64,000 bases of DNA, from contig SCTA01000021.1 of assembly GCA_004322275.1 (NCBI GenBank), positions 1 to 64,000 on the forward strand. Direction: 5' to 3'. This stretch comes from a bacterium. Its GTDB lineage: Bacteria; Desulfobacterota; Deferrisomatia; Deferrisomatales; BM512. Of the stretch, positions 50,690 through 64,000 are shown piece by piece (position 1 is the stretch's first letter; each line of letters begins with the position of its first letter). Both the position numbers and the translations under genes were made by a program. Below the pieces are notes generated by a model, which was given only the letters and a program-made list of their open reading frames with translations, was not told the DNA's origin and did no database searches.

Positions 50690-52138
50690 CTAGAACTTTG
50701 AAGCCGCCGCCTGCGCCAACTCCACCATCGCGCCCGGAACCATGCCGAGGAGGAGGATAACCACGACGGCTATGGTTGTGGCAAGGGCGATGAGACCTCC
50801 GGCGCGAAGGGGCTCGTCCGCCTTTTCGCCGGGCTCCTTGAAGTACATGTACACGAGCACCCGAAGGTAGTAGTAGACGCTGGCGGCGGAGTTAAGCACG
50901 CCGAGGACGGCCAGCCAGATGTAGCCCTGCTTGATGGCCGCCTTGAAGATCAGGAACTTGCCGATGAAACCCGCCGTCGGGGGTATTCCCGCCATCGAGA
51001 ACATGAAGACGGTGAGGGCGGCGGCTAAAAGGGGCTTTTTAAAGCCGATTCCGGCGTAGTCGTCGAGCGTGGTCCTCTGGTCGCCCTTCCTGCCGAGCAT
51101 GATTACGCAGGCAAAAGCGCCGATGTTCATGAAGGCGTAGGAGAAGAGGTAGAAGAGAAGCCCCGTTCCTGCGTCGGCGGTGGCCGTGACCATCGCGACC
51201 AGCAGATACCCGGCGTGCGCGATGGAGGAGTAGGCGAGCATGCGCTTTATGTCTTTTTGCACCAGCGCGGCGAGGTTGCCCATCGTCATGGTGAGAACCG
51301 CGATAATCCAGAGCGCCCCGCTCCAGCTTTCGACGGAGGCAGGGAAGGCGACGAGGAAAATGCGGAAGAAAGCCGCGAAGGCCGCAGCCTTGACGCCGGT
51401 GGCCATGAAGGCGGTCACGGGGGTGGGCGCTCCCTGATAGACGTCGGGTGTCCAGACGTGGAAGGGGAAGGCCGCCACCTTGAAGGCGAAACCTCCGGCG
51501 ATGAGGGCTATTCCCGCCAGCGCCATCGGGGAATGGGTCATCCCGCCCTGCGCGGCGAAATGGTTGAAGAGAAGGTCTATCTGCGTGGTGCCGGTGGAGG
51601 CGTAGAGAAGCGCGATCCCGTAAAGGAGAAAGGCCGAGGAAGCGCCGCCGAGGAGAAAGTACTTGAAGCTCGACTCCATGCCCTCTTTGGTTCTCATGTA
51701 ACCGGCCAGGGCGTAGATGGCTATCGACATCGTCTCCAGGCCGAGGAACATCATGAGGAGGTGGTTGGAGCTTGCCATCAGCATCATGCCCGTCATGGAC
51801 ATGAGCATCAGGGCGTGAAACTCGCCGTGCTCGTATTCCTCGCTCTTCATGAACCCGTCGGAGATAAGGAAACAGAGGAGACCGATGGAGCAGAAGATCA
51901 GCTTGAAGAAGGCCGAGTAGCTGTCGATTGAAAGCATCCCGGAAAAGCCGAGCTTCTTCTCCCCGAACTGGCCGAGGGCGAAGGCGGCGGCGACAAGAAC
52001 GCCGATGATCGAGAGCCAGGTCGTGTCGCTTCTGCCCGCGCCGGGGCGGAAGGCTTCGACGAGGAGCACCAGAAGCGCCGTCAGAGTGAGGACGATTTCC
52101 GGCGTTATCAGTGAAATATCCGACATCTGAAAGGTCAT
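50690..52138 (-). CDS. nuoN: NADH-quinone oxidoreductase subunit N
   Basis: This 482-residue antiporter-like membrane subunit has about 13-14 helices. It carries LETMSIAIYALAGYMR, PFHVWTPDVYQGAPTPVTAF and KRMLAYSSIAHAGYLL, the conserved Glu/Lys proton-channel motifs. It is the last gene of the operon. Confidence 0.93.
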   Translation of the reverse strand: MTFQMSDISLITPEIVLTLTALLVLLVEAFRPGAGRSDTTWLSIIGVLVAAAFALGQFGEKKLGFSGMLSIDSYSAFFKLIFCSIGLLCFLISDGFMKSEEYEHGEFHALMLMSMTGMMLMASSNHLLMMFLGLETMSIAIYALAGYMRTKEGMESSFKYFLLGGASSAFLLYGIALLYASTGTTQIDLLFNHFAAQGGMTHSPMALAGIALIAGGFAFKVAAFPFHVWTPDVYQGAPTPVTAFMATGVKAAAFAAFFRIFLVAFPASVESWSGALWIIAVLTMTMGNLAALVQKDIKRMLAYSSIAHAGYLLVAMVTATADAGTGLLFYLFSYAFMNIGAFACVIMLGRKGDQRTTLDDYAGIGFKKPLLAAALTVFMFSMAGIPPTAGFIGKFLIFKAAIKQGYIWLAVLGVLNSAASVYYYLRVLVYMYFKEPGEKADEPLRAGGLIALATTIAVVVILLLGMVPGAMVELAQAAASKF

Positions 52139-52152
52139 AAAAATCCCTCCCG

Positions 52153-53703
52153 TTACTTGCGGAGCGTTTCGGCGCCGCTAAAGAGAGAAGCGACGGGGTT
52201 TTTGACGGGCTCAAGTTCCATGCAGGCTATCTTCTTCGTCTCGATATGTGAAAGCCACGCGGTAATCGTGGGCTCCATCTTCGAGGTGAAGGTCGCGGGG
52301 TAGATTCCCATCCAGAAGGCCAGAATCACCATCGGCATGAGATAGCCCCACTCAAGACCGGTAAGGTCCGTAAGGTTCTTGTTGGCCTCGTTTTCAAGCG
52401 GTCCGAAAAACACCCTGCGGTACATCCACAGCATGTAGCCCGCCGCCAGTATGACGCCCGAGGCGGCGAAGATGGCTGCTATCGGCGATGAGAGGTAAGC
52501 TCCCATCATTATGAGGAACTCGCCCACGAAGCCGTTTAGCCCGGGAAGGCCGATCGAGCTCATGGTGATTATGAGGAAGATCGTCGCGTAGTAGGGCATC
52601 TGGCGGGCCAGCCCGCCGAAATCCTCTATCATGCGGGTGTGCCTGCGCTCGTAGATTACGCCGACCAGAAGGAAGAGCGCGCCGGTGGAGATGCCGTGGT
52701 TCAGCGACTGGTAGAGGCCGCCGACCACTCCTTGCGCGTTCAGGGCGAAGATGCCGAGCATGACGTACCCGAGGTGGGAGACGGAGGAGTAGGCGACCAG
52801 CTTCTTTACGTCTTTTTGCACCATCGCGACGAGGGCGCCGTAGATTATGCCGACAACGGCCAGCGTCATCATGAAGGGGGTGGCGGCGACGACCGCGTTG
52901 GGAAAGAGCGGCATGGCGAAGCGAAGGAAGCCGTAGCACCCCATCTTCAGAAGGACGCCCGCCAGAATGACGGAGCCCGCCGTCGGGGCCTGCGTGTGGG
53001 CGTCGGGCAGCCAGGTGTGGACAGGCCACATCGGCACCTTTATGGCAAAGGCGAGCGCGAAGGCCATGAACATCACCATCTGGACGCTCGGGGCTATCGG
53101 CAGCTTGTAGAGTTCCAGAATGTTGAAGGTGGCCGGGTTGCCCGCCTTTATATTGAGGTAGTAGAGGGCGATTATCGCGACCAGCATCAGCAGCGAGCCG
53201 ACCATCGTGAAGATGAAGAACTTCACGGCGGCGTAAATGCGCTCCTTGCCCCCCCAGACGCCAATGAGAAAGTACATCGGGATGAGCATCGCCTCCCAGA
53301 AGATGTAGAAGAGGAAGAGGTCGAGGCTCGCAAGCGCTCCGATCATCCCGGTTTCGAGGAGAAGGAAGAAGAACATGTACTGTTTCAGCTTCTTTTCCAC
53401 CGACCCGGAAGAGAGGATGCAGATGACCGAGAGGAAGGTGGTCAGCATCACCAGCCAGAGGCTTATGCCGTCTATGCCGAGGTGATACGAGATGCCCAGC
53501 GAGGGTATCCAGTCGACTTTCTCCACGTACTGCATCCCGGCCTTCGCGCTGTCGAAACCGAAGAGCAGCGGAAGGCTGATTACAAAATTGACGCAGGCCG
53601 TGAAGAGGGCGAACCCCCGTATCGCGCCGGTAGATTCCTCCTTCATCAGGAGGATGGCTATTGCGCCTATCAGCGGCAAAAAGGCGAGTATCGTCAGGAT
53701 CAT
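52153..53703 (-). CDS. nuoM: NADH-quinone oxidoreductase subunit M
   Basis: This 516-residue antiporter-like subunit has WEAMLIPMYFLIGVWGG, PVHTWLPDAHTQAPTAGSVI and KKLVAYSSVSHLGYVMLG. It lies 14 bases ahead of nuoN. Fully intact with conserved Glu and Lys proton-path residues. Confidence 0.94.
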   Translation of the reverse strand: MILTILAFLPLIGAIAILLMKEESTGAIRGFALFTACVNFVISLPLLFGFDSAKAGMQYVEKVDWIPSLGISYHLGIDGISLWLVMLTTFLSVICILSSGSVEKKLKQYMFFFLLLETGMIGALASLDLFLFYIFWEAMLIPMYFLIGVWGGKERIYAAVKFFIFTMVGSLLMLVAIIALYYLNIKAGNPATFNILELYKLPIAPSVQMVMFMAFALAFAIKVPMWPVHTWLPDAHTQAPTAGSVILAGVLLKMGCYGFLRFAMPLFPNAVVAATPFMMTLAVVGIIYGALVAMVQKDVKKLVAYSSVSHLGYVMLGIFALNAQGVVGGLYQSLNHGISTGALFLLVGVIYERRHTRMIEDFGGLARQMPYYATIFLIITMSSIGLPGLNGFVGEFLIMMGAYLSSPIAAIFAASGVILAAGYMLWMYRRVFFGPLENEANKNLTDLTGLEWGYLMPMVILAFWMGIYPATFTSKMEPTITAWLSHIETKKIACMELEPVKNPVASLFSGAETLRK

Positions 53704-53725: not shown

Positions 53726-55741
53726 CTAGAACGCGGCCACCAGCAGGACGAGGGCCACCGCGCCGGCGGCTATCGTCAGGGCATAGGCCTGTACCTGGCC
53801 GTTTTGTAGTTTGGCTAAGATCGATCCCACCGTGCGCACCGCGCCGGCGACGCCGTTTACGAGGCCGTCGATGACCACCACGTCCCAGAACTTCCAGAAG
53901 TGGTTGGCGAGCCCGACGCAGCCGCCTACGAAGACCGCTCCGTATATCTCGTCCACGAAATACTTGTTGTAGAGGAGGGTGTAGACGCCCTTGGCGGAGG
54001 CCGCGATCTTCGCGGGTATCTCGGGGCGCTTTATGTAGAGGTAGACGGCGACGAGTATTCCGGCGAGGGCGTAGCCGACGGACATGAACATCAGAAGGTA
54101 CTCGGTGAAGTCGTGGCCGCCGCCCGCCGCTGCCGCGTGTCCGGCTTCCGCGGCCGCTTCGTGGCCACCCGCGAAGGCCGAGGCCACTCCGAGCCCGCCG
54201 CTGCCGACCATGTTGGCCGCTTCCCTAACCGCGACGTGGGCTGCGCTGGAATCGAGCACCGGGGCCAGCCAGTGGTGAAACATGTTGGAGCCGCCGAGGG
54301 CCTCGGGAATCCCCACCCAGCCGCCGACTATCGAGAGCCCGGCAAGCACGTAGAGGGGAACGTACATCGAGGCGGGAGACTCGTGCGGATGGACGTGGTG
54401 GTGGTCGAACTTCTCCTTGCCGAAGAAGGTCATGAAGACCAGGCGGAACATGTAGAAGGCCGTTACGCCCGCCGCGATGAAGCCGAGCAGCCACTGGAGC
54501 TTGAAGCCGCGGGAGAAGGCCATCCAGAGAATCTCGTCCTTGGAGAAGAAGCCCGCCAGCGGAGGTATGCCCGCAATCGCTATCGTCGCGATGAGGAAGG
54601 TCTTGTAGGTGTGAGGCATGTACTTCCGAAGGTTGCCCATGTGCCTCATGTCCTGCTGGTCGTGCATCCCGTGGATTACGGAGCCGGAGCCGAGGAAAAG
54701 GCAGGCCTTGAAGAAGGCGTGGGTCATCAGGTGGAAGATGCCCGCGACGTAAGCCCCGACGCCCATTGCGAGAAACATGTAGCCGAGCTGGCTTACCGTC
54801 GAGTAGGCGAGGACCTTCTTTATGTCGTTTTGCACCAGCGCTATCGACCCCGCGAAGAGGGCGGTGAGCGCGCCGACGGTGGCTACGGTGGCCATCGCCG
54901 CCGGTGCCATAGAGAACATGATGTTGCAGCGGCCTATCATGTAGACGCCCGCGGTGACCATCGTGGCGGCGTGGATGAGGGCGGAGACCGGGGTGGGGCC
55001 CGCCATCGCGTCGGGAAGCCATACGTAGAGGGGAATCTGCGCGGACTTGCCGGTCGCGCCGACGAAGAGGAGAAGGCAGATCGCCGTGACCGTCGCTCCG
55101 CCGTAGAGAAGGACGTTGGGTGCGCTGTTCATCACCTCGCGGAAGTTAAGGGTGCCGAAGTTCTGGAAGATCATGAACATCGCGATGAGAAAGCCGAAGT
55201 CGCCTATGCGGTTGACCACGAAGGCCTTCATGCCCGCAGTGGCCTTGGCCATATCGTCGAACCAGAAGCCGATGAGGAGGTAGGAGCAGAGGCCGACGCC
55301 TTCCCAACCCACGAAGAGGACCAGAAAGGAGTTGCCCAGCACCAGCGTGAGCATCGCGAAGCAAAAGAGGTTGAGGTAGGTGAAGAAGCGGGTGTACCCC
55401 TTGTCGTGGTGCATGTAGCCGGTGGAGTAGACGTGGATCAGAAAGCCGACGCCGGTGACGATCAGGGTCATTACCGAGCTTAAGGGATCGATAAGATACC
55501 CGAGGTCGATCTTCGTGGAGCCCGCCTGTATCCAGGTGAAGAGAACCTGTTCGTGGAACCTGTGGGACGGGTCGAGCCCCATAAGCCCTATGAAGGCCCC
55601 CACCGAGACGAGGAAGGAAAGGAAGATGGAGCCGCAGGCGACCGCGTTGACCGCGCCGTGACCCCACTTCTTGCCGAAGACGCCGTTTATGAACGCCCCA
55701 AGCATGGGAAAAAATGGAATGAGCCAGATATACTCAAGCAT
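53726..55741 (-). CDS. nuoL: NADH-quinone oxidoreductase subunit L
   Basis: This 671-residue subunit has the long C-terminal lateral helix. FVGWEGVGLCSYLLIGFW, PLYVWLPDAMAGPTPVSALIH and KKVLAYSTVSQLGYM are present. A His-rich stretch (FDHHHVHPHES) sits about residue 440, and an Ala/Gly/His-rich loop lies near 530-545. Confidence 0.94.
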   Translation of the reverse strand: MLEYIWLIPFFPMLGAFINGVFGKKWGHGAVNAVACGSIFLSFLVSVGAFIGLMGLDPSHRFHEQVLFTWIQAGSTKIDLGYLIDPLSSVMTLIVTGVGFLIHVYSTGYMHHDKGYTRFFTYLNLFCFAMLTLVLGNSFLVLFVGWEGVGLCSYLLIGFWFDDMAKATAGMKAFVVNRIGDFGFLIAMFMIFQNFGTLNFREVMNSAPNVLLYGGATVTAICLLLFVGATGKSAQIPLYVWLPDAMAGPTPVSALIHAATMVTAGVYMIGRCNIMFSMAPAAMATVATVGALTALFAGSIALVQNDIKKVLAYSTVSQLGYMFLAMGVGAYVAGIFHLMTHAFFKACLFLGSGSVIHGMHDQQDMRHMGNLRKYMPHTYKTFLIATIAIAGIPPLAGFFSKDEILWMAFSRGFKLQWLLGFIAAGVTAFYMFRLVFMTFFGKEKFDHHHVHPHESPASMYVPLYVLAGLSIVGGWVGIPEALGGSNMFHHWLAPVLDSSAAHVAVREAANMVGSGGLGVASAFAGGHEAAAEAGHAAAAGGGHDFTEYLLMFMSVGYALAGILVAVYLYIKRPEIPAKIAASAKGVYTLLYNKYFVDEIYGAVFVGGCVGLANHFWKFWDVVVIDGLVNGVAGAVRTVGSILAKLQNGQVQAYALTIAAGAVALVLLVAAF

Positions 55742-55765: not shown

Positions 55766-56068
55766 TCAACCCTTTAAAAGGTTGATGTCCTCGGCGTAGA
55801 CCGTCTTGCGGTACCGGTACAGGTTCACGACTATTGCAAGCCCCACCGCCGCCTCGGCTGCGGCCACCGTTATCACGAAGAAGACGTAGATCAGCCCCTC
55901 CGCGGAATCGAGGTGGTCGGAAGCTGCGACGAAGGCGAGGTTCACGGCGTTCAGCATCAGTTCGACGCACATCAGAAGAACCAGAATGTTTCTCCTGACG
56001 AAGAGGCCGATAGCGCCTATACCGAAGAGCAGGGCGGAGAGCAGCATCGAGTGTTCAAAAGGTATCAT
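55766..56068 (-). CDS. nuoK: NADH-quinone oxidoreductase subunit K
   Basis: This 100-residue three-helix subunit has MCVELMLNAVNLAFVA with the conserved buried Glu, and a second Glu in AAAEAAVGLAIVV. It sits between nuoJ and nuoL. Confidence 0.94.
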   Translation of the reverse strand: MIPFEHSMLLSALLFGIGAIGLFVRRNILVLLMCVELMLNAVNLAFVAASDHLDSAEGLIYVFFVITVAAAEAAVGLAIVVNLYRYRKTVYAEDINLLKG

Positions 56069-56083
56069 CGTTATTCTCCCGCC

Positions 56084-56581
56084 TTAGAGTTTCTTCTTGG
56101 CCAGGGCGACCGCGCCCACGAGGCCTACGAGCAGCAGGATCGAGGCGACCTCGAAGGGAAGGAGGTACGGCCCGAAGAGCTTGTCGGCAAGAAATTCGAC
56201 GCTCCCCTGCTTTAGCAGCGCCGCTTCGCTCATGTCGCCCCTGCCGGTGAAGGGCGCCTTGACGAAAGCCGTCAGCACGCCGAAGACCATGAGGCCGGTA
56301 AGTATCCCTATGCCGAGGAAGGCGTTGGCGCGCTTTCTGTCCGACTCCTGCCCCATGTCTATGAGGAAGATGACGAAGATGACCAGCATCATCACCGCCC
56401 CGGCGTAGACCGCTATCTGAACGGCGGCAATGAAGTCGGCGTGGTTCAGGAGGAAGATGACCGCGAGGCAGATCATCGTTCCCAGCATGCAGAGGGCGGA
56501 GTGCAGGGGCTGCTTCGAGATAAGGACCCCTACCGCCGCGATCACCGCAAGGGCGGCGAAAATATAGAAAAGCACTATCAT
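56084..56581 (-). CDS. nuoJ: NADH-quinone oxidoreductase subunit J
   Basis: This 165-residue five-helix subunit contains LNHADFIAAVQIAVYAGAVMMLVIF, here seen as the Tyr-Ala-Gly-Ala motif of TM3. ATGA overlaps with nuoI. It follows nuoI and precedes nuoK, as in standard operons. Confidence 0.92.
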   Translation of the reverse strand: MIVLFYIFAALAVIAAVGVLISKQPLHSALCMLGTMICLAVIFLLNHADFIAAVQIAVYAGAVMMLVIFVIFLIDMGQESDRKRANAFLGIGILTGLMVFGVLTAFVKAPFTGRGDMSEAALLKQGSVEFLADKLFGPYLLPFEVASILLLVGLVGAVALAKKKL

Positions 56582-57003
56582 CGCTTACTCTCCGTAGCGA
56601 CAAGCTGGTCGCGCGTCATGTGAAAATCCTGACGCCTGTAATCGCAGAACTCGTAGTTGCGGGTAAGTTCGATCGCGTCCTTGGGGCAGGCTTCCTGGCA
56701 GTAGCCGCAGAAGATGCACCGGGTGACCTCTACGTCGAAGCGCGACGGGAAGGAGCGCCCGTCGTCGGTCATTTTCCTGTCCACCGAGATGACGTTGGCG
56801 GGGCAAACCACCTCGCAAAGGCCGCAGGCGACGCACTTTATCTTGCCGTTTTCGGTCTTGAGCCGGTGAAGTCCGCGCCATCTGTCGCTAACTTCCCTTT
56901 TCTGCTCCGGGTACTGGTAGGTTATGGGCTTTGTGAAGATGTACCCGAAGGTCTTCATCATCCCCTTTATGAGCGGGATGAGGGTATCGAATATGGCCTT
57001 CAT
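56578..57003 (-). CDS. nuoI: NADH-quinone oxidoreductase subunit I
   Basis: This 141-residue 8Fe ferredoxin-like subunit has CVACGLCEVVCP and CIFCGYCQEACP (clusters N6a and N6b). ATG at 57003. These clusters connect the peripheral arm to the quinone site, so this subunit is needed whatever the electron donor is. Confidence 0.92.
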   Translation of the reverse strand: MKAIFDTLIPLIKGMMKTFGYIFTKPITYQYPEQKREVSDRWRGLHRLKTENGKIKCVACGLCEVVCPANVISVDRKMTDDGRSFPSRFDVEVTRCIFCGYCQEACPKDAIELTRNYEFCDYRRQDFHMTRDQLVATESKR

Positions 57004-57023: not shown

Positions 57024-58022
57024 TTACGCTGTAAAGAGGCTGACAGCCGCAGTCAGGAGAAGGTTTATGATCGCGATGGGCATCATCCACTTCCACCCGA
57101 GGTGCATTATCTGGTCGTAGCGGAGGCGCGGGAAGGTGCCGCGCTCCCAGATGAAGAAGAAGACCAGAGCGAAGACCTTGCCCATGAAGATCAGTATCTT
57201 GGGCACGAAGGGAAGCTCTATGCCGAAGGGGAGGTTCCAGCCGCCCAGGAAGAGGCAGGTGGTTATCGCCGCCAGGGAAATCATGTGCGCGTATTCCGCC
57301 ATGAAGAAGAGGGCGAACTTCATCGAGGAGTACTCGATGTTGAAGCCGCAGGCCAGCTCCGCCTCCGCCTCCGACATGTCGAAGGGGGTGCGGTTTATCT
57401 CGGCGAGGCCGCAGATGATGAGGAGAACGAAGGCCACCGGCTGCTTGAAGATGAGCCACCACTCGCGCTGGTAAGCGACGATCTTGGTCAGCGACATCGT
57501 GCCCGTGATCATTATCACGCTTACGAGGGTTAGACCCATCGCCAGTTCGTAGCTGATGCCCTGCGCCGCGCTTCTCATCGCACCCAGAAGGCCGTAGCGG
57601 TTGCGGGAGGACCAGCCGCCCAGCATCGGCCCGTAGGCGCTGATTCCGGCGAGTCCTATTATGTAGATTATTCCGATGTTTATGTCCGCTATCGCCAGCC
57701 GTATCTCGCGGCCGAAAACGGTGACGGTGTCGCCGAAGGGTATCGCGCCGACGATTAAAATAGCCGGAATGAGCGAGATAACCGGGGCGAGGATGAAGAC
57801 CGGCTTGTCCACGTTTGCCGGGACGAGGTCCTCCTTGAAGAAGAACTTCAGGCCGTCGCAGACCGGCTGCAAAAGACCCCAGGGGCCGACGCGGTTTGGC
57901 CCGTGGCGGACCTGAATCCAGCCGAGCACCTTTCTTTCAAGAAGCGTGGTGTAAGCGACGCAGCCGAGCAGCACCGCGAAGACCACGACGACTTTTATAA
58001 GGCTTACGATCACATATTCCAC
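57024..58022 (-). CDS. nuoH: NADH-quinone oxidoreductase subunit H
   Basis: This 332-residue membrane subunit has RKVLGWIQVRHGPNRVGPWG, the GWSSRNRYGLLGAMRSAAQ quinone-site loop and EINRTPFDMSEAEAELACGF. It links the peripheral and membrane arms. It lies 13 bases after the selenocysteine gene. Confidence 0.94.
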   Translation of the reverse strand: MEYVIVSLIKVVVVFAVLLGCVAYTTLLERKVLGWIQVRHGPNRVGPWGLLQPVCDGLKFFFKEDLVPANVDKPVFILAPVISLIPAILIVGAIPFGDTVTVFGREIRLAIADINIGIIYIIGLAGISAYGPMLGGWSSRNRYGLLGAMRSAAQGISYELAMGLTLVSVIMITGTMSLTKIVAYQREWWLIFKQPVAFVLLIICGLAEINRTPFDMSEAEAELACGFNIEYSSMKFALFFMAEYAHMISLAAITTCLFLGGWNLPFGIELPFVPKILIFMGKVFALVFFFIWERGTFPRLRYDQIMHLGWKWMMPIAIINLLLTAAVSLFTA

Positions 58023-58035
58023 CGTAAAACCCTCC

Positions 58036-60711
58036 TTATACCTTGCGGACGCTGACGGCGGTAACCTTCAGCTCCGGTATTTTCGCCGTGGGACAGCTAG
58101 CGGTGTTGGTCAGGACGTTGACCGGCGATTCGCAGTAATGGAACGTCATAAAGAGCTTGCCTTTGCCGATGGTGTCCACCACCTTCACCTTCGAGGTTAT
58201 CTCCCCTCGCCTTGAAGAGAGGGAGACTATGTCTCCGGTGACGATGGAGAGCGCCTTTGCGTCGGCGGGGTTCATTTCGAGGAAACCCTCGCGGTAGACC
58301 TCGCTCAGTTTCTTCGAGTTGCGGGTCATGGTGCCGGAATGGTAATGGGCCTGCTCCCTCCCGGTGGTCAGGATGAAGGGGTACTGCTCGTCCGGCGCTT
58401 CCGCCGGGCCCTCGAAGGAGACCACCGAGAAGAGACCCTTGCCTCGGGCTATCTTGCCGACGTGGAGTATCTCCGTGCCTGGATGCGCCTTGTCCGGGCA
58501 GGGCCACTGTATGCCCTCTTTTTCGAGCCGCCCGTAATCCAGTCCGGCGTAGCTGGGAGTGAGGGAGGTTATCTCGGCGAAGACGTCCTGTCCCCTCGGG
58601 GAACCCAGGTCGTAGCCCATCCGGGAGGAAAGGGCGCAGATGATTTCGGAATCGTTTCGCGCGCTCCCCGGCGGCTCCACCACCTTGCGCACGCGCTGGA
58701 CGCGCCGCTCGGTGTTGGAGAAGGTGCCCTCCTTCTCGGGGAAGGCGGTGGAGGGGAAGACGACGTGGGCTTTCGCGGCGGTCTCGGTGAGGAAGATGTC
58801 CTGCACGACGAAAAGATCGAGCGAATCGAAGCCCTTTTCGATGTGGCTGAGATCGGGGTCGGTGAGCATCGGGTTTTCGCCCATCACGTAGAGGGCCTTT
58901 ATCTTCTTGCCCAGCTCGTGGCCGACCTCCGTCAGCTTCAGGCCCTGCTTCGCGGGAAGAGAGACGCCCCAAGCCTTCTCGAACTTCGCCCGGAGGGTTT
59001 CGTCCTCGACGGACTGGTAGCCGGAAAAGACGTTGGGAAGTCCGCCCATGTCGCAGGCGCCCTGGACGTTGTTTTGCCCGCGCAGCGGGTTCACTCCGCC
59101 GCCGGGTTTCCCGACGTTGCCGCAGAGCATGGCGAGATTCGCCAGATTTCGCACCGAGGCGGTGCCCTCGGTGAACTGGGTGACGCCCATCGCGTAGAGA
59201 ATCGCGGCGGGGGCGCTCTCGGCATAGATTCTGGCGGCTTTTCTGATGTCTTCGGCGGGGATGGCGGTGAGCGCCGCCACCGATTCGGGCGTGAACTTCT
59301 CTATGGAGGCCCGAAATTCCTCGAAACCCTCGCAGCGCTCGGCGATGTACGCCTTGTCTTCCAGCCCTTCGGCCAGAATCACGTTCATCATCGCCGCGAT
59401 TACCGGGATGTTGTAGCCGGGCGGCACCTGGAGGTAGACGTTGGCGTATTTGACCAGAGGTATGCGCCTCGGGTCTATGACGATGAGCTTCGCGCCCCTC
59501 TTGGTGATAGCCTTCTTTACCCTGTCGCCGATGATCGGGTGGTTTTCCGTGGTGTTCGAGCCGATGACGAGGAAGGTGCCGGTATTGTCGGCCAGATCGT
59601 CTATCGAGTTCGTCATCGCGCCGCTTCCGAAGCTTGTGGCCAGACCGGCCACGGTAGAGCTGTGTCAGAGGCGTGCGCAGTGGTCGACGTTGTTCGTCCC
59701 TACCACCGCGCGGATGAATTTCTGGAAGAGGTAATTGTCTTCATTGGTGCAGCGGGCGCTGGTGAACCCCGCAATCGCGTCGGGGCCGTGCTTTTCCTTT
59801 ATTTCGCCGAGCCTTCCGGCGACGTAGGTAAGCGCCTCGTCCCAGCTTACGGGGGTAAGCTCCCCGTTCTTGCGTATCAGCGGCTCTTTGAGCCGGTCCT
59901 CGTGGCCGACGAACTCCCATCCGAAACGCCCCTTTACGCAGAGGCTCCCGTAGTTGGGCTTTCTGGAGAACTCGGTGGTGGTGACGCGCAGTATCCTGTT
60001 GTTGCGGGCGTTGAACTGGAACTGGCAGCCGACGCCGCAGTAGCCGCAGGTAGTCGTGGTTCTCTTGGACTGCCAGATTCTGGCCTTCTCCTCGATTACC
60101 GCGTCGGTCAGCGCCCCTACCGGGCAGACGGAGAGGCATTCGCCGCAGCAGATGCAGTCAACTCCCTCCACCGGGCCTATGTAGGACTTAAAGCCGTTGT
60201 CCGTGATCTTTATGCACCCTATCCCCTTTACCTCCTTGCAGGCCCGCACGCAGCGGCCGCAGAGGATGCAGCGGTCCTGCCACTGCTTGATGAAGGGGGA
60301 GATGTAGTGATCGGGCATGTTGCGGTTCGGCGGGGGCGCCCTGAAAGGCAGGTCGGTTATCCCGAACTCCCAGACGATGTCCTGAAGGTCGCACTCGCCG
60401 CCCTTGTCGCAAACCGGGCATTCGAGCGGGTGGTTGATCAGCAGCAGCTTGAGGGCGTCCTGCCGCATCTTGTGGAGGGCGGAGGACTCGGTGGTGACCG
60501 CCATCCCTTCCGCCGCCAGAGTGTCGCAGGCGCCGACGGGCTTTCTGAGCCCCTCGATCTCCACCATGCACATTCTGCACGAGCCGAGCGGGCTCAGCTT
60601 CGCGAGCCAGCAAAGAGTCGGGATTTTGATATTCGCCCCGTTCGCCGCTTCGAGTATCGTGCGGCCCTCTTCCACCTTTATTGGCGTACCGTTTATCGTA
60701 AGATTTATCAT
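58036..60711 (-). CDS. NuoG-like formate dehydrogenase with in-frame UGA (selenocysteine)
   Basis: Two collinear frames meet at one TGA (59665-59667, minus strand). Read through, they give an 891-residue protein with selenocysteine at 349, in NVDHCARL-U-HSSTVAGL, the exact catalytic position of formate dehydrogenase. A hairpin with arms GTGGCC and GGCCAC around a GGTCT loop starts 12 bases after the TGA and matches the bacterial SECIS pattern. Order of domains: 2Fe-2S (C34, C45, C48, C62), His-ligated 4Fe-4S (H94, C98, C101, C107), two 4Fe-4S (CILCGRCVRAC, CICCGECLSVC), then FDH 4Fe-4S (C222, C225, C229, C258) and the molybdopterin domain with NPLRGQNNVQGACDMG. It occupies the nuoG position. 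It is probably a formate-oxidising module docked to complex I. Confidence 0.9.
59636..59667 (-). promoter_or_regulatory. SECIS-like element with UGA selenocysteine codon
   Basis: UGA at 59667-59665, then 12 bases, then arms GTGGCC and GGCCAC with the loop GGTCT (59652-59636). The GGTCU loop and the spacing resemble the fdhF SECIS of E. coli. Confidence 0.85.
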
Positions 60712-60741
60712 GGTTCCTTCCCCAAAGCTCGCCAAGGACCG

Positions 60742-62688
60742 TCAGGCCTTCGCGGCTACCAGTAAACGGTAGCAACGCAGGCACCTTTCGGCCTCCCGGA
60801 TCGCTTCCTCATGGGTAAACCCGATTTCCACTTCTCTTGTGTTCGTCACCCGGTCGGCCACCGGAAGGTGGTGGATCTTCGCGGGTTCGGAGTTCTTCGG
60901 CTGCCCTACGTCCTCTTTTTTGGAATAGGGCTTGAGTGATTCGACGTATTTGTTTATGACCCACTCCCGTATCGGCTGGGTCGAGCCTTCGAGCAGGAAG
61001 CGGTCTATCTGGAAGGCTGCTTCCTTGCCCGCCGCGAGCCCCGCTATAAGGGTGAGAGGCCCGGTCTCGCAGTCGCCGCCGGAAAAGACGCCGACGTTGC
61101 CGCGGACCGCCGCGAGCTTGTTGAGCCCCTGCACCGAAATCGTCTTCCACTTCGTAGTCTTGATGTCCTCGGCTCCGGACAGAAGGCCAAGATCGATCGC
61201 CTGACCGATGGCCATGATGCAGCAGTCGGCTTCGATTATGTGCTCGGAGCCCGCCTTTTCGATGGGGCTTCTCCTGCCGGAGGCGTCGGGCGGGCCGAGT
61301 TCCATGTCTATGACCTCGACGCCGGTGACCTTGCCGCTTTCGGAGACTATCTTCTTGGGGTTGGTGAGGACCACCATCTCGATGTTTTCCGCCTTCGCGT
61401 CGGTTATCTCGACCTTGTCGGCGGGCATCTCGGCCTCGGAGCGGCGATAGACTATCTTCACCTTCTTAAAGCCGGTGCGAAGGGCGGTGCGGGCGCAGTC
61501 GATGGCCACGTTGCCGCCCCCGACGATTATCGCGGTATCGCCTACGTACACTTTCTTGCCGAGGGCCACGTCGCGCAGGTAGTCGGCGCCCTTGTAAAAG
61601 CCGGTGATTTCGTCGCCCTCGCCGGGAACGCCCATCGAGGTGCCGAGGCGGGCGCCTATCGCGATGAAGACCGAGCGGTATTCGCCGCCGGTGAGGTCTT
61701 CAAGCGAGATATCCTTGCCCACGTCGGTGTTGTAGCGTATCTCGACGCCGAGGTCTTTTATGATGTCCACCTCGTGGCGGAGCAACTCGCGGGGAAGGCG
61801 GTAATCCGGTATGCCCACGGCGGCCATGCCGCCGGGCTCGCCGAGAGCCTCGAAGATAACGGGAGCGTAGCCGAGCTGCGCGAGGAAGTAGGCGCAGGAG
61901 AGTCCCGCCGGGCCCGCGCCGACAATCGCGATCTTCGCGCCCTTCTTCTCGGGAGCGGTGATGCGCACCGGGCGGTTTCTCTCTATCTCGTAGTCGGCGA
62001 CGAAGCGTTTGAGGAACTTTATCTGGATGGGGCCGTCGACGTTTTGCCTCCTGCAGTTGAATTCGCAGGGGCGTACGCAGATTCTGCCGATGGTGCCGGG
62101 CAGGCAGTTGTCGCGCCGGACAAGGTTCAGGCTCTCCTCGAACTGGCCCTTCTTGATGAGCTCGACGTATTCGGGTATTTCGAGGTGCGCCGGGCAGGCG
62201 GACTTGCAGGGGGCGGTGGTGGCGACCACGTAGTCGCCCTTCTTCGCGGGCTTTTTCTGGGCCACGCGCTCCAGCATTTCGTCCCTGAAGTTCTCGTAGA
62301 GGTCTAAAAGGGCTTTGCCCGAAGACTGGCCGAGGTCGCACATAGCCTGGACCCTGAGGTTTCCGGCGAGGTGTCCCACCGCTTCTACGTCTTCGTTCGT
62401 GCCCGTTCCATCGCAGATTCTTCCGAGGGCGGCTTCGATAACCGAGGAGCCTATCCTGCACGGGACGCACTGCCCGCAGGAGTTTTTCGAGAGCCCTTCG
62501 GCGTAGGCCCTGGCGAGATCGACCACGTCGGCCCCGCCCCAGACGGCTATGCCGTCCCACCCCATTACGGCGGAGAGGGCGGTGCCGTCGCCGAGGTCTT
62601 TTGGAAGCGCTACCGAGTCGGCAGTCGCGGGGGATTTCCTGCTGTCTACCCCTGCGCCGGCCCAGCTTGAAAAGACGAGTTCGCTCAT
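60742..62688 (-). CDS. NuoF C-terminal fragment fused to a GltD-type NAD(P)H oxidoreductase
   Basis: This 648-residue protein has two parts. Residues about 68-125 match the N3-cluster end of NuoF (SCGQCVPCRIG with C71, C74, C77, and C117). The NADH/FMN-binding first half of NuoF is absent. The rest is GltD-like: Cys-rich entry (C161, C165, C195, C204, C208, C212), FAD loop GAGPAG (257-262), NAD(P)H loop GGGNVA (390-395) and YRRSEAEMP. It resembles the beta subunit of Geobacter NADPH oxidoreductase SfrAB as I remember it. It probably feeds electrons from NAD(P)H to the cluster chain, or the reverse. No nuoE is present. Confidence 0.82.
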   Translation of the reverse strand: MSELVFSSWAGAGVDSRKSPATADSVALPKDLGDGTALSAVMGWDGIAVWGGADVVDLARAYAEGLSKNSCGQCVPCRIGSSVIEAALGRICDGTGTNEDVEAVGHLAGNLRVQAMCDLGQSSGKALLDLYENFRDEMLERVAQKKPAKKGDYVVATTAPCKSACPAHLEIPEYVELIKKGQFEESLNLVRRDNCLPGTIGRICVRPCEFNCRRQNVDGPIQIKFLKRFVADYEIERNRPVRITAPEKKGAKIAIVGAGPAGLSCAYFLAQLGYAPVIFEALGEPGGMAAVGIPDYRLPRELLRHEVDIIKDLGVEIRYNTDVGKDISLEDLTGGEYRSVFIAIGARLGTSMGVPGEGDEITGFYKGADYLRDVALGKKVYVGDTAIIVGGGNVAIDCARTALRTGFKKVKIVYRRSEAEMPADKVEITDAKAENIEMVVLTNPKKIVSESGKVTGVEVIDMELGPPDASGRRSPIEKAGSEHIIEADCCIMAIGQAIDLGLLSGAEDIKTTKWKTISVQGLNKLAAVRGNVGVFSGGDCETGPLTLIAGLAAGKEAAFQIDRFLLEGSTQPIREWVINKYVESLKPYSKKEDVGQPKNSEPAKIHHLPVADRVTNTREVEIGFTHEEAIREAERCLRCYRLLVAAKA

Positions 62689-62704: not shown

Positions 62705-63883
62705 CTACCGGTCGATTTCGCCGAGAACGATGTCGACTGAACCGATGATGGCTATTACGTCCGCGACCATGCCCCCCAGGCACATATCCTTTAACGACTG
62801 GAGGTTGATGAGGCTCGGCGGACGAACGCGGAAGCGGTAGGGTTTCTCGCTGCCGTCCGAAACCAGGTAAAAACCGAGTTCGCCCTTGGTGGCTTCGATC
62901 GACATGTAAACGTCGCCCACGGGGGCCTTGTAGCCCGCGCTCATCTGCTTGAAGTGGCGGATGAGCGACTCGATGCAGGTGTAGACTTCCTCCTTGGGCG
63001 GGGGAGTGTAGCGGAAGTCGTCGAGCATGTACGGCCCGGGGGGCAGCCTGTCGAGAGCCTGCTCCACGATGCGGTTTGACTGGCGCATCTCGGCGAGGCG
63101 GACGAGGTAACGCTCGAAAACGTCGCCCACCGTTCCGGTCGGAATCTCGAAATCGTAGGTCTCGTAACCGCAGTAGGGCATGACCTTGCGAAGATCCCAC
63201 TTGATGCCCGCCGCGCGAAGGACCGGGCCGGTGATGGCGTACTGGACGCAGGCCTCTTTCGAGAGAATGCCGATGCCCTCGGTGCGCTTGCGCCATATCT
63301 TGTTGTTGGTGAGGAGCCCCTCGTACTCGTCCACCCTGCCGGGGAATTCCTTTACGAACTTCCTGGCCTTCTCGATGAACTTCGGGGTGATGTCCTGAGC
63401 GATGCCGCCGGGCCTTATGAAGCTGGGGGTCAGGCGCGCTCCGGAAACCTCCTCGATCATCTCGTGGACGAGCTCGCGCTCGCGGAAGGCGTAGAAAAGG
63501 ACTGTCATCGCGCCCATGTCGAGCGCGTGGGCCGCTATCCAGATCAGGTGGCCGGCGATGCGCTGAAGCTCGCAGAGCATGACGCGGGCGACCGTGGCGC
63601 GCTCGGGTATGTCGCCTTCTATGTCGAGAAGTTTCTCGACCGCCAGGGTGTACCCGAGGTTGTTCAGGAGCGCGCCGGTGTAATCCATGCGGTCGGTAAG
63701 TGGCAGGGCCTGCAGGTAGGTCTTGGACTCGGCGAGCTTTTCAAGCCCCCTGTGCAGGTGCCCCAGGTGCGGAATAACGTCGCGCACCGTCTCGCCCTCC
63801 AGCTCCAGCACCACGCGAAGGACGCCGTGGGTGGCCGGATGGGAGGGACCGAGGTTGAGAATCATATTCTTGGGCTCGGACAT
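62705..63883 (-). CDS. nuoD: NADH-quinone oxidoreductase subunit D
   Basis: This 392-residue subunit (49-kDa type) has LGPSHPATHGVLRV, the TDRMDYTGALLNNLGY region and the C-terminal LGEIDR. It forms much of the quinone-binding cavity. A nuoC gene precedes it, so the two are separate and not fused. Confidence 0.95.
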   Translation of the reverse strand: MSEPKNMILNLGPSHPATHGVLRVVLELEGETVRDVIPHLGHLHRGLEKLAESKTYLQALPLTDRMDYTGALLNNLGYTLAVEKLLDIEGDIPERATVARVMLCELQRIAGHLIWIAAHALDMGAMTVLFYAFRERELVHEMIEEVSGARLTPSFIRPGGIAQDITPKFIEKARKFVKEFPGRVDEYEGLLTNNKIWRKRTEGIGILSKEACVQYAITGPVLRAAGIKWDLRKVMPYCGYETYDFEIPTGTVGDVFERYLVRLAEMRQSNRIVEQALDRLPPGPYMLDDFRYTPPPKEEVYTCIESLIRHFKQMSAGYKAPVGDVYMSIEATKGELGFYLVSDGSEKPYRFRVRPPSLINLQSLKDMCLGGMVADVIAIIGSVDIVLGEIDR

Positions 63884-63905: not shown

Positions 63906-64000
63906 TTACCGGTAAACCGCTTTTTGCGGGATACCGCAAAGCGGGAAATCCTTGCGTAGCGGGTGGCCTTCGTAGCCGTCCCAGGTCATTATCCTTCTAA
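63906..64000 (-). CDS. nuoC: NADH-quinone oxidoreductase subunit C, 3' end only
   Basis: Only the last 31 residues are inside the window. They read RRIMTWDGYEGHPLRKDFP, the conserved ending of NuoC, followed by LCGIPQKAVYR and the stop at 63906-63908. The rest lies beyond the window edge. Confidence 0.85.
   Translation of the reverse strand, partial: RRIMTWDGYEGHPLRKDFPLCGIPQKAVYR

What the first reader, a model, noticed from the sequence alone, without database searches (positions are those of the whole stretch)
60742..62688. NuoF truncated and fused to a GltD-type module; nuoE missing
Only the N3-cluster end of NuoF is kept, the FMN/NADH half being replaced by a GltD-like FAD/NAD(P)H domain. 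No nuoE is found between nuoD and nuoH. With the FDH gene it forms a pair similar to SfrAB of Geobacter as I recall it, here built into nuo. This predicts a complex I with NADPH and/or formate input rather than classic NADH input.
Basis: partly seen in the sequence, partly recalled or inferred. Interest (0 to 1): 0.75.

Follow-up and report, generated by a model that had tools for sequence, protein, structure and literature searches.

The report
Complex I with NADPH/formate input module
In a deep-branching group of anaerobic bacteria (Deferrisomatia), the respiratory proton pump "complex I" has lost its usual NADH-reading part and carries in its place the two genes of an NADPH-linked, selenium-containing formate dehydrogenase, so it is predicted to run on formate and NADPH instead of NADH.

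Summary
ORF 60742-62688 (-) encodes a 648-aa protein: the C-terminal [4Fe-4S] (N3) part of NuoF, without the FMN/NADH half, joined to a complete GltD-type Fe-S/FAD/NAD(P)H unit. It sits between nuoD and a NuoG-type protein whose C-terminal part is an intact formate dehydrogenase with a conserved in-frame UGA (selenocysteine). nuoE is absent; nuoABCD and nuoH-N are complete. All 10 class genomes in which this stretch is assembled carry the fusion (63-79% identity); the other two contigs break right after nuoD. The same pair occurs free-standing in Nitrospirota, and once inside a nuo operon of an unrelated lineage. Nearest characterised enzymes: NADPH-dependent formate dehydrogenase of Moorella (SfrB-type beta subunit), SfrAB, FdsA, NfnABC/Stn. 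Best reading: a soluble NADP-linked formate dehydrogenase has replaced the NADH module of complex I, giving a reversible proton-pumping formate/NADPH:quinone oxidoreductase. Physical assembly, NADPH rather than NADH, and direction are inferred. A new variant of a known kind; no description found in the open literature held.

The parts
60742..62688 (-). NuoF'-GltD fusion, 648 aa: end of the NuoF soluble-ligand-binding domain + N3 [4Fe-4S] bundle (C71,C74,C77,C117), then a GltD-type unit (Fe-S ligands C161,C165,C204,C208,C212 plus C-terminal C636,C639; FAD fold about 250-300; NAD(P)H fold about 385-460 with YRRxxxEMPA)
   Evidence: Cys positions; all these Cys invariant in 13 homologues
58036..60735 (-). 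NuoG-type N-terminus fused to a complete formate dehydrogenase catalytic subunit with selenocysteine; probable ATG at 60711; naive ORFs split at the UGA
   Evidence: TIGR01591 Fdh-alpha 834.5 bits over its cut-off of 666; NuoG 2Fe-2S, N5-type and dicluster domains; collinear with FdsA of Rhodobacter capsulatus 6tg9 over aa 6-896, 755 bits
59665..59667 (-). in-frame UGA (selenocysteine, ...DHCARL-U-HSSTV), followed by a 6-bp hairpin with GGUCU loop
   Evidence: UGA in 9 of 9 nuo-linked copies; hairpin kept, with paired changes in L053; tRNA-Sec in genome, 70.1 bits over cut-off 47. Folding energy alone is not significant (z -0.7)
62705..63883 (-). nuoD
   Evidence: TIGR01962 543.5 bits over cut-off 459; orthologue in 12 of 12 class genomes at 76-81%
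63906..64000 (-). nuoC (cut by window end); nuoB and nuoA follow beyond the window on the same contig (C21 64401-65254)
   Evidence: ORFs in L012; matches to orthologues
57024..58022 (-). nuoH
   Evidence: ORF; orthologues in the same place, 62-76%
56578..57003 (-). nuoI (N6a/N6b ferredoxin subunit)
   Evidence: sequence in ORF; orthologues
56084..56581 (-). nuoJ
55766..56068 (-). nuoK
53726..55741 (-). nuoL
52153..53703 (-). nuoM
50690..52138 (-). nuoN

Best explanation
The operon encodes a 13-gene complex I in which the NADH module (NuoE, NuoF, NuoG) is replaced by a two-subunit NADPH-linked selenocysteine formate dehydrogenase of the SfrAB/Moorella type. Predicted wiring: NADPH reduces FAD in the GltD part; electrons run through its two Fe-S sites to the N3 cluster of the NuoF remnant, then to the NuoG-type clusters. 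Formate is oxidised at the Mo/W-selenocysteine site and feeds the same NuoG-type clusters. From there both streams pass NuoI and NuoB to the quinone, driving proton pumping by NuoH-N. Because formate and NADPH have nearly equal potentials, the module can also interconvert formate + NADP+ and CO2 + NADPH, and with a proton gradient it may run backward to reduce CO2 or NADP+. Shown: gene content, domain architecture, intact catalytic and Fe-S motifs, operon position, conservation, absence of any other NuoEF. Inferred: physical assembly, cofactor choice, direction, coupling.
For: Architecture of both subunits. Exact position of nuoF-nuoG between nuoD and nuoH in every assembled case: 8 of 8 named contigs have the fusion directly after nuoD, 6 of 6 that reach further have nuoH next, and 10 of 12 class genomes carry the fusion, the other two contigs ending right after nuoD. 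Host genome has no NuoF FMN domain, no other N3 domain, no true NuoE. FDH site intact: Sec-His and the LRGQNNVQG stretch, selenocysteine conserved 9/9, tRNA-Sec present. NuoG-type N-terminus has all eight Cys of the two-cluster ferredoxin, as in FdsA, so the wire from the Mo site to the chain is complete. GltD part nearest to NADPH-using NfnABC, Stn, NfnB, GltD, with GGGNxAxDxxR...YRRxxxEMPA invariant. The same pair exists as a stand-alone unit (L128), so it is a self-contained FDH module. Precedent: Moorella NADPH-dependent FDH has an SfrB2 beta subunit; its potentials are given in PMC13040438. Precedent for swapped input modules: NuoXY of Campylobacterota (PMC6682613).
Against: No biochemistry, expression or structure of the complex exists. 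Physical binding of the module to NuoI/NuoD/NuoC is not tested; gene order alone supports it. NADPH over NADH rests on homology and motif. In the tree of the FDH subunit the nuo-linked copy of L053 groups with a stand-alone Nitrospirota copy (100/100), so the module moves in and out of nuo operons, which leaves room for loose association. The fusion model has mean pLDDT 74.8, with low confidence in the Fe-S loop at 202-221.
Confidence: 0.7

Rival explanations
1. The two genes make a soluble NADP-dependent formate dehydrogenase that is merely co-transcribed with an 11-subunit complex I. The latter would take electrons from ferredoxin or another donor.
For: The same pair stands alone in Nitrospirota (L128). 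11-subunit complex I without NuoEFG is common (PMC11238625), and this genome has a second such cluster.
Against: The pair lies exactly in the nuoF-nuoG slot, between nuoD and nuoH, in every assembled class member and again in unrelated L053. It retains NuoF N3 and NuoG domains. The separate 11-subunit cluster in the same genome has no such genes.
Confidence: 0.17
2. Same integrated complex, but it works mainly in reverse: menaquinol plus proton gradient drives CO2 to formate and NADP+ to NADPH for the Wood-Ljungdahl pathway and biosynthesis. (A sub-case of the best explanation, not exclusive of it.)
For: CdhC (acetyl-CoA synthase) is present in 12 of 12 class genomes. Formate/CO2 and NADPH are too negative to be reached from menaquinol without energy. 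Own genome lacks PF01512, a domain also found in RnfC, and hence any recognised Rnf, while at least one relative has an rnf operon just upstream of nuo.
Against: No expression or growth data. Forward use as an entry point for formate and NADPH in metal or sulfur respiration explains the same genes.
Confidence: 0.3
3. The GltD part uses NADH, so the complex is a cryptic NADH:quinone oxidoreductase with an additional formate input.
For: NADH specificity cannot be excluded from sequence; GltD-like units are described as NAD(P)H oxidising (PMC8097209).
Against: The closest solved relatives with known cofactor use NADPH at this unit (NfnABC, Stn, NfnB, GltD, mammalian DPD), and the arginine pair of the NADPH-type motif is invariant.
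Confidence: 0.12
4. Chimera, misassembly or decaying gene.
For: The FDH gene looks broken in naive ORF calls.
Against: The break is a conserved UGA in 9/9 copies with a conserved hairpin. The fusion is intact in at least 10 genomes at 63-79% identity with 78% mean column identity.
Confidence: 0.01

Closest known systems
NADPH-dependent formate dehydrogenase of Moorella thermoacetica (SfrB2 beta; SfrA2 + FdhF3 alpha; PMC13040438)
   Same: SfrB-type subunit paired with a NuoG-like/FDH catalytic subunit; NADPH and formate as substrates
   Different: Moorella enzyme is a soluble tetramer with the alpha part split in two genes; not in a nuo operon. Sequence not compared directly here
SfrAB of Geobacter sulfurreducens
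   Same: GltD-like SfrB and NuoG/FDH-like SfrA; NADPH oxidising (PMC7483475, PMC13186404)
   Different: Soluble, linked to acetate metabolism/NADP regeneration; not inserted in nuo as far as the papers read say; I could not fetch its sequence
FdsABG formate dehydrogenase of Rhodobacter capsulatus (6tg9)
   Same: Alpha subunit collinear with the window's NuoG/Fdh protein over its whole length (755 bits)
   Different: Soluble NAD+-linked enzyme with complete NuoF- and NuoE-like subunits; catalytic Cys aligned where the window has Sec
NfnABC / Stn bifurcating transhydrogenases (9bov, 9n5u, 8oh5)
   Same: Combine NuoF-, NuoG- and GltD-type parts; closest solved GltD parts
   Different: GltD is fused to NuoG, NuoF keeps FMN; StnC tested without formate activity (PMC7483475); soluble
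Campylobacterota complex I with NuoXY (PMC6682613)
   Same: NuoE and NuoF replaced inside an otherwise complete nuo operon, giving a different electron donor
   Different: Donor is flavodoxin/ferredoxin; no GltD or FDH part
Fdh-Ech / formate hydrogenlyase
   Same: Formate dehydrogenase feeding a complex I-like pump
   Different: Ends in a [NiFe] hydrogenase rather than a quinone site

Membership tests
Respiratory complex I (NADH:quinone oxidoreductase, 14 subunits) | Membrane arm and Q-module NuoA,B,C,D,H,I,J-N | tested here: met
   All eleven present and collinear
Respiratory complex I (NADH:quinone oxidoreductase, 14 subunits) | NuoF with FMN/NADH domain (PF01512) | tested here: not met
   Absent from the gene and from the whole genome
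Respiratory complex I (NADH:quinone oxidoreductase, 14 subunits) | NuoE thioredoxin-like 2Fe-2S subunit | tested here: not met
   No nuoE in the operon; only a nif-linked ferredoxin-like ORF elsewhere
Respiratory complex I (NADH:quinone oxidoreductase, 14 subunits) | NuoG Fe-S N-terminus | tested here: met
   Fer2_4, NADH-G_4Fe-4S_3, Fer4_Nqo3 above cut-off; TIGR01973 421.9 bits, under its cut-off of 470
SfrAB / NADPH-dependent formate dehydrogenase module | NuoF-N3 + GltD fusion subunit | tested here: met
SfrAB / NADPH-dependent formate dehydrogenase module | FDH catalytic subunit with intact active site | tested here: met
   TIGR01591 over cut-off, Sec-His, LRGQNNVQG
SfrAB / NADPH-dependent formate dehydrogenase module | NADPH oxidation | not testable with these tools
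   motif and homology only
SfrAB / NADPH-dependent formate dehydrogenase module | direct sequence kinship to Geobacter SfrAB or Moorella SfrB2 | not tested
NfnABC/Stn electron-bifurcating transhydrogenase | second flavin site (NuoF-type FMN/NADH) for bifurcation | tested here: not met
   no PF01512 in genome
Selenoprotein | in-frame UGA conserved, downstream hairpin, tRNA-Sec | tested here: met

The most novel reading that the evidence does not exclude
A complex I whose input module is a bidirectional NADPH-formate enzyme, used in reverse as a proton-gradient-driven CO2 reductase and NADP+ reductase, so that the first step of carbon fixation is directly coupled to the membrane potential through complex I.
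Probability: 0.25. Interest if true: 0.85.

Novelty: new variant of a known kind. Interest (0 to 1): 0.64.

Why it matters
The electron donor of complex I is usually taken as fixed (NADH) or unknown (11-subunit forms). Here the donors are readable from the genes: NADPH and formate. It is a natural exchange of the NADH module for a stand-alone enzyme that still exists free in other bacteria, which makes the modular-evolution model of complex I directly testable. Annotation pipelines would call this "NADH dehydrogenase", split the selenoprotein, and derive a wrong energy budget for a whole class of anaerobes.

Tried and rejected
Hidden normal NuoE/NuoF in the genome: rejected. Contig artefact: rejected. 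Frameshift or pseudogene for the FDH gene: rejected, conserved UGA. Bifurcating Nfn/Stn-type enzyme: not supported, no second flavin site. The PF01512 hits of about 450 aa near nuo in relatives looked like normal NuoF; in the one case read (L046) it is RnfC inside an rnf operon upstream of nuoA. Folding energy of the UGA hairpin alone is not significant, so only conservation is used. Attempts to reach Geobacter genomes by handle failed: a centre for the genome search must be a genome handle and none of mine lies there. Literature searches found no description of this arrangement, but subscription journals and preprints are not held.

Full report
WHAT IS THERE. The ORF 60742-62688 on the minus strand is real and complete (648 aa). 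Pfam finds the NuoF Fe-S region (aa 57-140), the two-cluster Fer4_20 region (157-237) and the FAD/NAD(P)H pyridine-nucleotide fold (252-544), and no PF01512 FMN/NADH domain. The NuoF model TIGR01959 matches only its last 100 positions. The protein begins near the end of NuoF's soluble-ligand-binding domain (VMGWDGIAVWGGADVVDLARAYAEGL), runs through the N3 motif SCGQCVPCRIG...C117, and continues into a full GltD-type unit. In 13 homologues the N3 cysteines (71, 74, 77, 117), C161, C165, C204, C208, C212 and the C-terminal C636 and C639 are invariant. The RCLRC motif at the very end probably supplies two Fe-S ligands that ordinary GltD carries at its N-terminus; that is my inference. AlphaFold2 gives mean pLDDT 74.8. 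The best structural neighbours are NfnABC, Stn, NfnB and GltD.

THE PARTNER. Directly downstream lies a NuoG-type protein (58036-60735) with an in-frame UGA at 59665-59667. With UGA read as selenocysteine it scores 834.5 bits as formate dehydrogenase alpha, above the curated cut-off of 666, and aligns over aa 6-896 with FdsA of Rhodobacter capsulatus (6tg9, 755 bits). UGA is conserved in 9 of 9 nuo-linked copies. The hairpin after it has a 6-bp stem and GGUCU loop; in L053 the stem changes on both sides and still pairs. tRNA-Sec is in the genome at 70.1 bits. The N-terminus has eight cysteines for two 4Fe-4S clusters in the ferredoxin part, as in FdsA, so the wire from the Mo/W site is intact.

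OPERON AND GENOME. Order on the minus strand: nuoA, B, C, D, [NuoF'-GltD], [NuoG-Fdh], H, I, J, K, L, M, N. nuoE is missing. In the whole genome (2.88 Mb, rated 100% complete) PF01512 has no match, PF10589 matches only this gene, and the single weak PF01257 hit is a ferredoxin-like ORF beside nifH. A second, 11-subunit nuo cluster without any E, F or G lies on contig C35, so the module is specific to the cluster in the window.

DISTRIBUTION. In the 12 class genomes held, nuoD of this cluster is present in 12 (76-81% identity). The fusion follows it in 10 (63-79%). In the other two the contig ends within about 110 bases after nuoD. Named records include Deferrisomatales, which places the window in that group. 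Outside it, MAG SKW176 (L053), from a lineage with only three genomes held, carries the same arrangement in a full nuo operon, next to a second nuo cluster. Its genome too lacks PF01512. In Nitrospirota, 28 of 295 genomes have close relatives: the fusion plus NuoG-Fdh alone (L128), the fusion plus a short NuoG-like ferredoxin protein (L055, L056, L130-L132), the fusion between two NuoG/Fdh-type genes (L135-L139), and complete NuoF-GltD fusions of about 1060 aa (L141). The last form shows what the window protein could have looked like before losing its FMN half, although the direction of change is not established. Trees: Deferrisomatia form one clade for the fusion protein. The nuo-linked L053 FDH subunit groups with the free-standing L128 (100/100). 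So the module joined nuo twice, or joined once and left again.

HOW IT PROBABLY WORKS. NADPH to FAD to the GltD clusters to N3 to the NuoG-type clusters; formate to Mo/W-Sec to the same clusters; then NuoI, NuoB, quinone, with proton pumping. Direct support for the chemistry is the NADPH-dependent formate dehydrogenase of Moorella, whose beta subunit is SfrB2. In that paper the potentials are E0' CO2/formate -432 mV and cellular NADPH -370 mV, close enough for easy reversal (PMC13040438). All 12 class genomes have CdhC of the Wood-Ljungdahl pathway, so formate is probably a central intermediate and reverse operation is plausible. Motif and kinship favour NADPH over NADH, without proof.

WHAT IS KNOWN. 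Swapped input modules exist: Campylobacterota NuoXY with flavodoxin or ferredoxin (PMC6682613). Many anaerobes have 11-subunit complexes with unknown donors (PMC11238625; PMC12142623). Modules mixing NuoF, NuoG and GltD exist in soluble NfnABC/Stn (PMC7483475). I found no account of a NADPH-linked formate dehydrogenase as the N-module of complex I in the open-access library; subscription papers and preprints were not searchable. Hence: new variant of a known kind.

Noticed in passing
L013 (own genome contig C35, about 88.5-100.4 kb): A second nuo cluster, nuoABCDHIJKLMN plus an extra NuoL-like gene, with no E, F or G: an 11-subunit complex I with unknown donor, in the same cell as the NADPH/formate type.
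   Followed up: partly
L015:6093-13317 (own genome contig C19): A complex I-like/group 4 hydrogenase-like cluster with a NuoD-type subunit, possibly of the Ehr kind; not checked for metal ligands.
   Followed up: no
L046:2154-7251: An rnf operon (rnfA,B,C,D,G,E) lies directly upstream of nuoA in a relative; other relatives have a PF01512 ORF of RnfC-like size at the same distance. The window's genome has no PF01512 at all, so apparently no Rnf.
   Followed up: partly
L141:8138-9952 and similar Nitrospirota loci L110-L122: Complete NuoF (with FMN domain) fused to GltD in one protein of about 1060 aa: a possible NADH/NADPH transhydrogenase and possible precursor state of the truncated fusion.
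   Followed up: partly
L135:4089-11096 (also L136, L137, L139): The fusion sits between two NuoG/Fdh-type genes, the first with Cys instead of Sec, the second with the active-site motif lost (read in L135).
   Followed up: no
L053:1-21739: Two nuo clusters in tandem in one small-genome MAG, only the second seen with the NADPH/formate module (the first is cut by the locus end).
   Followed up: no
L012:5744-7090 (contig C21 about 65.7-67.1 kb): A multihaem cytochrome c-like gene just upstream of nuoA, same strand.
   Followed up: no
L014:4143-8805: nif cluster (nifH, two PII-type regulators, nifE/N-like) with a small 2Fe-2S thioredoxin-like ferredoxin ORF.
   Followed up: no
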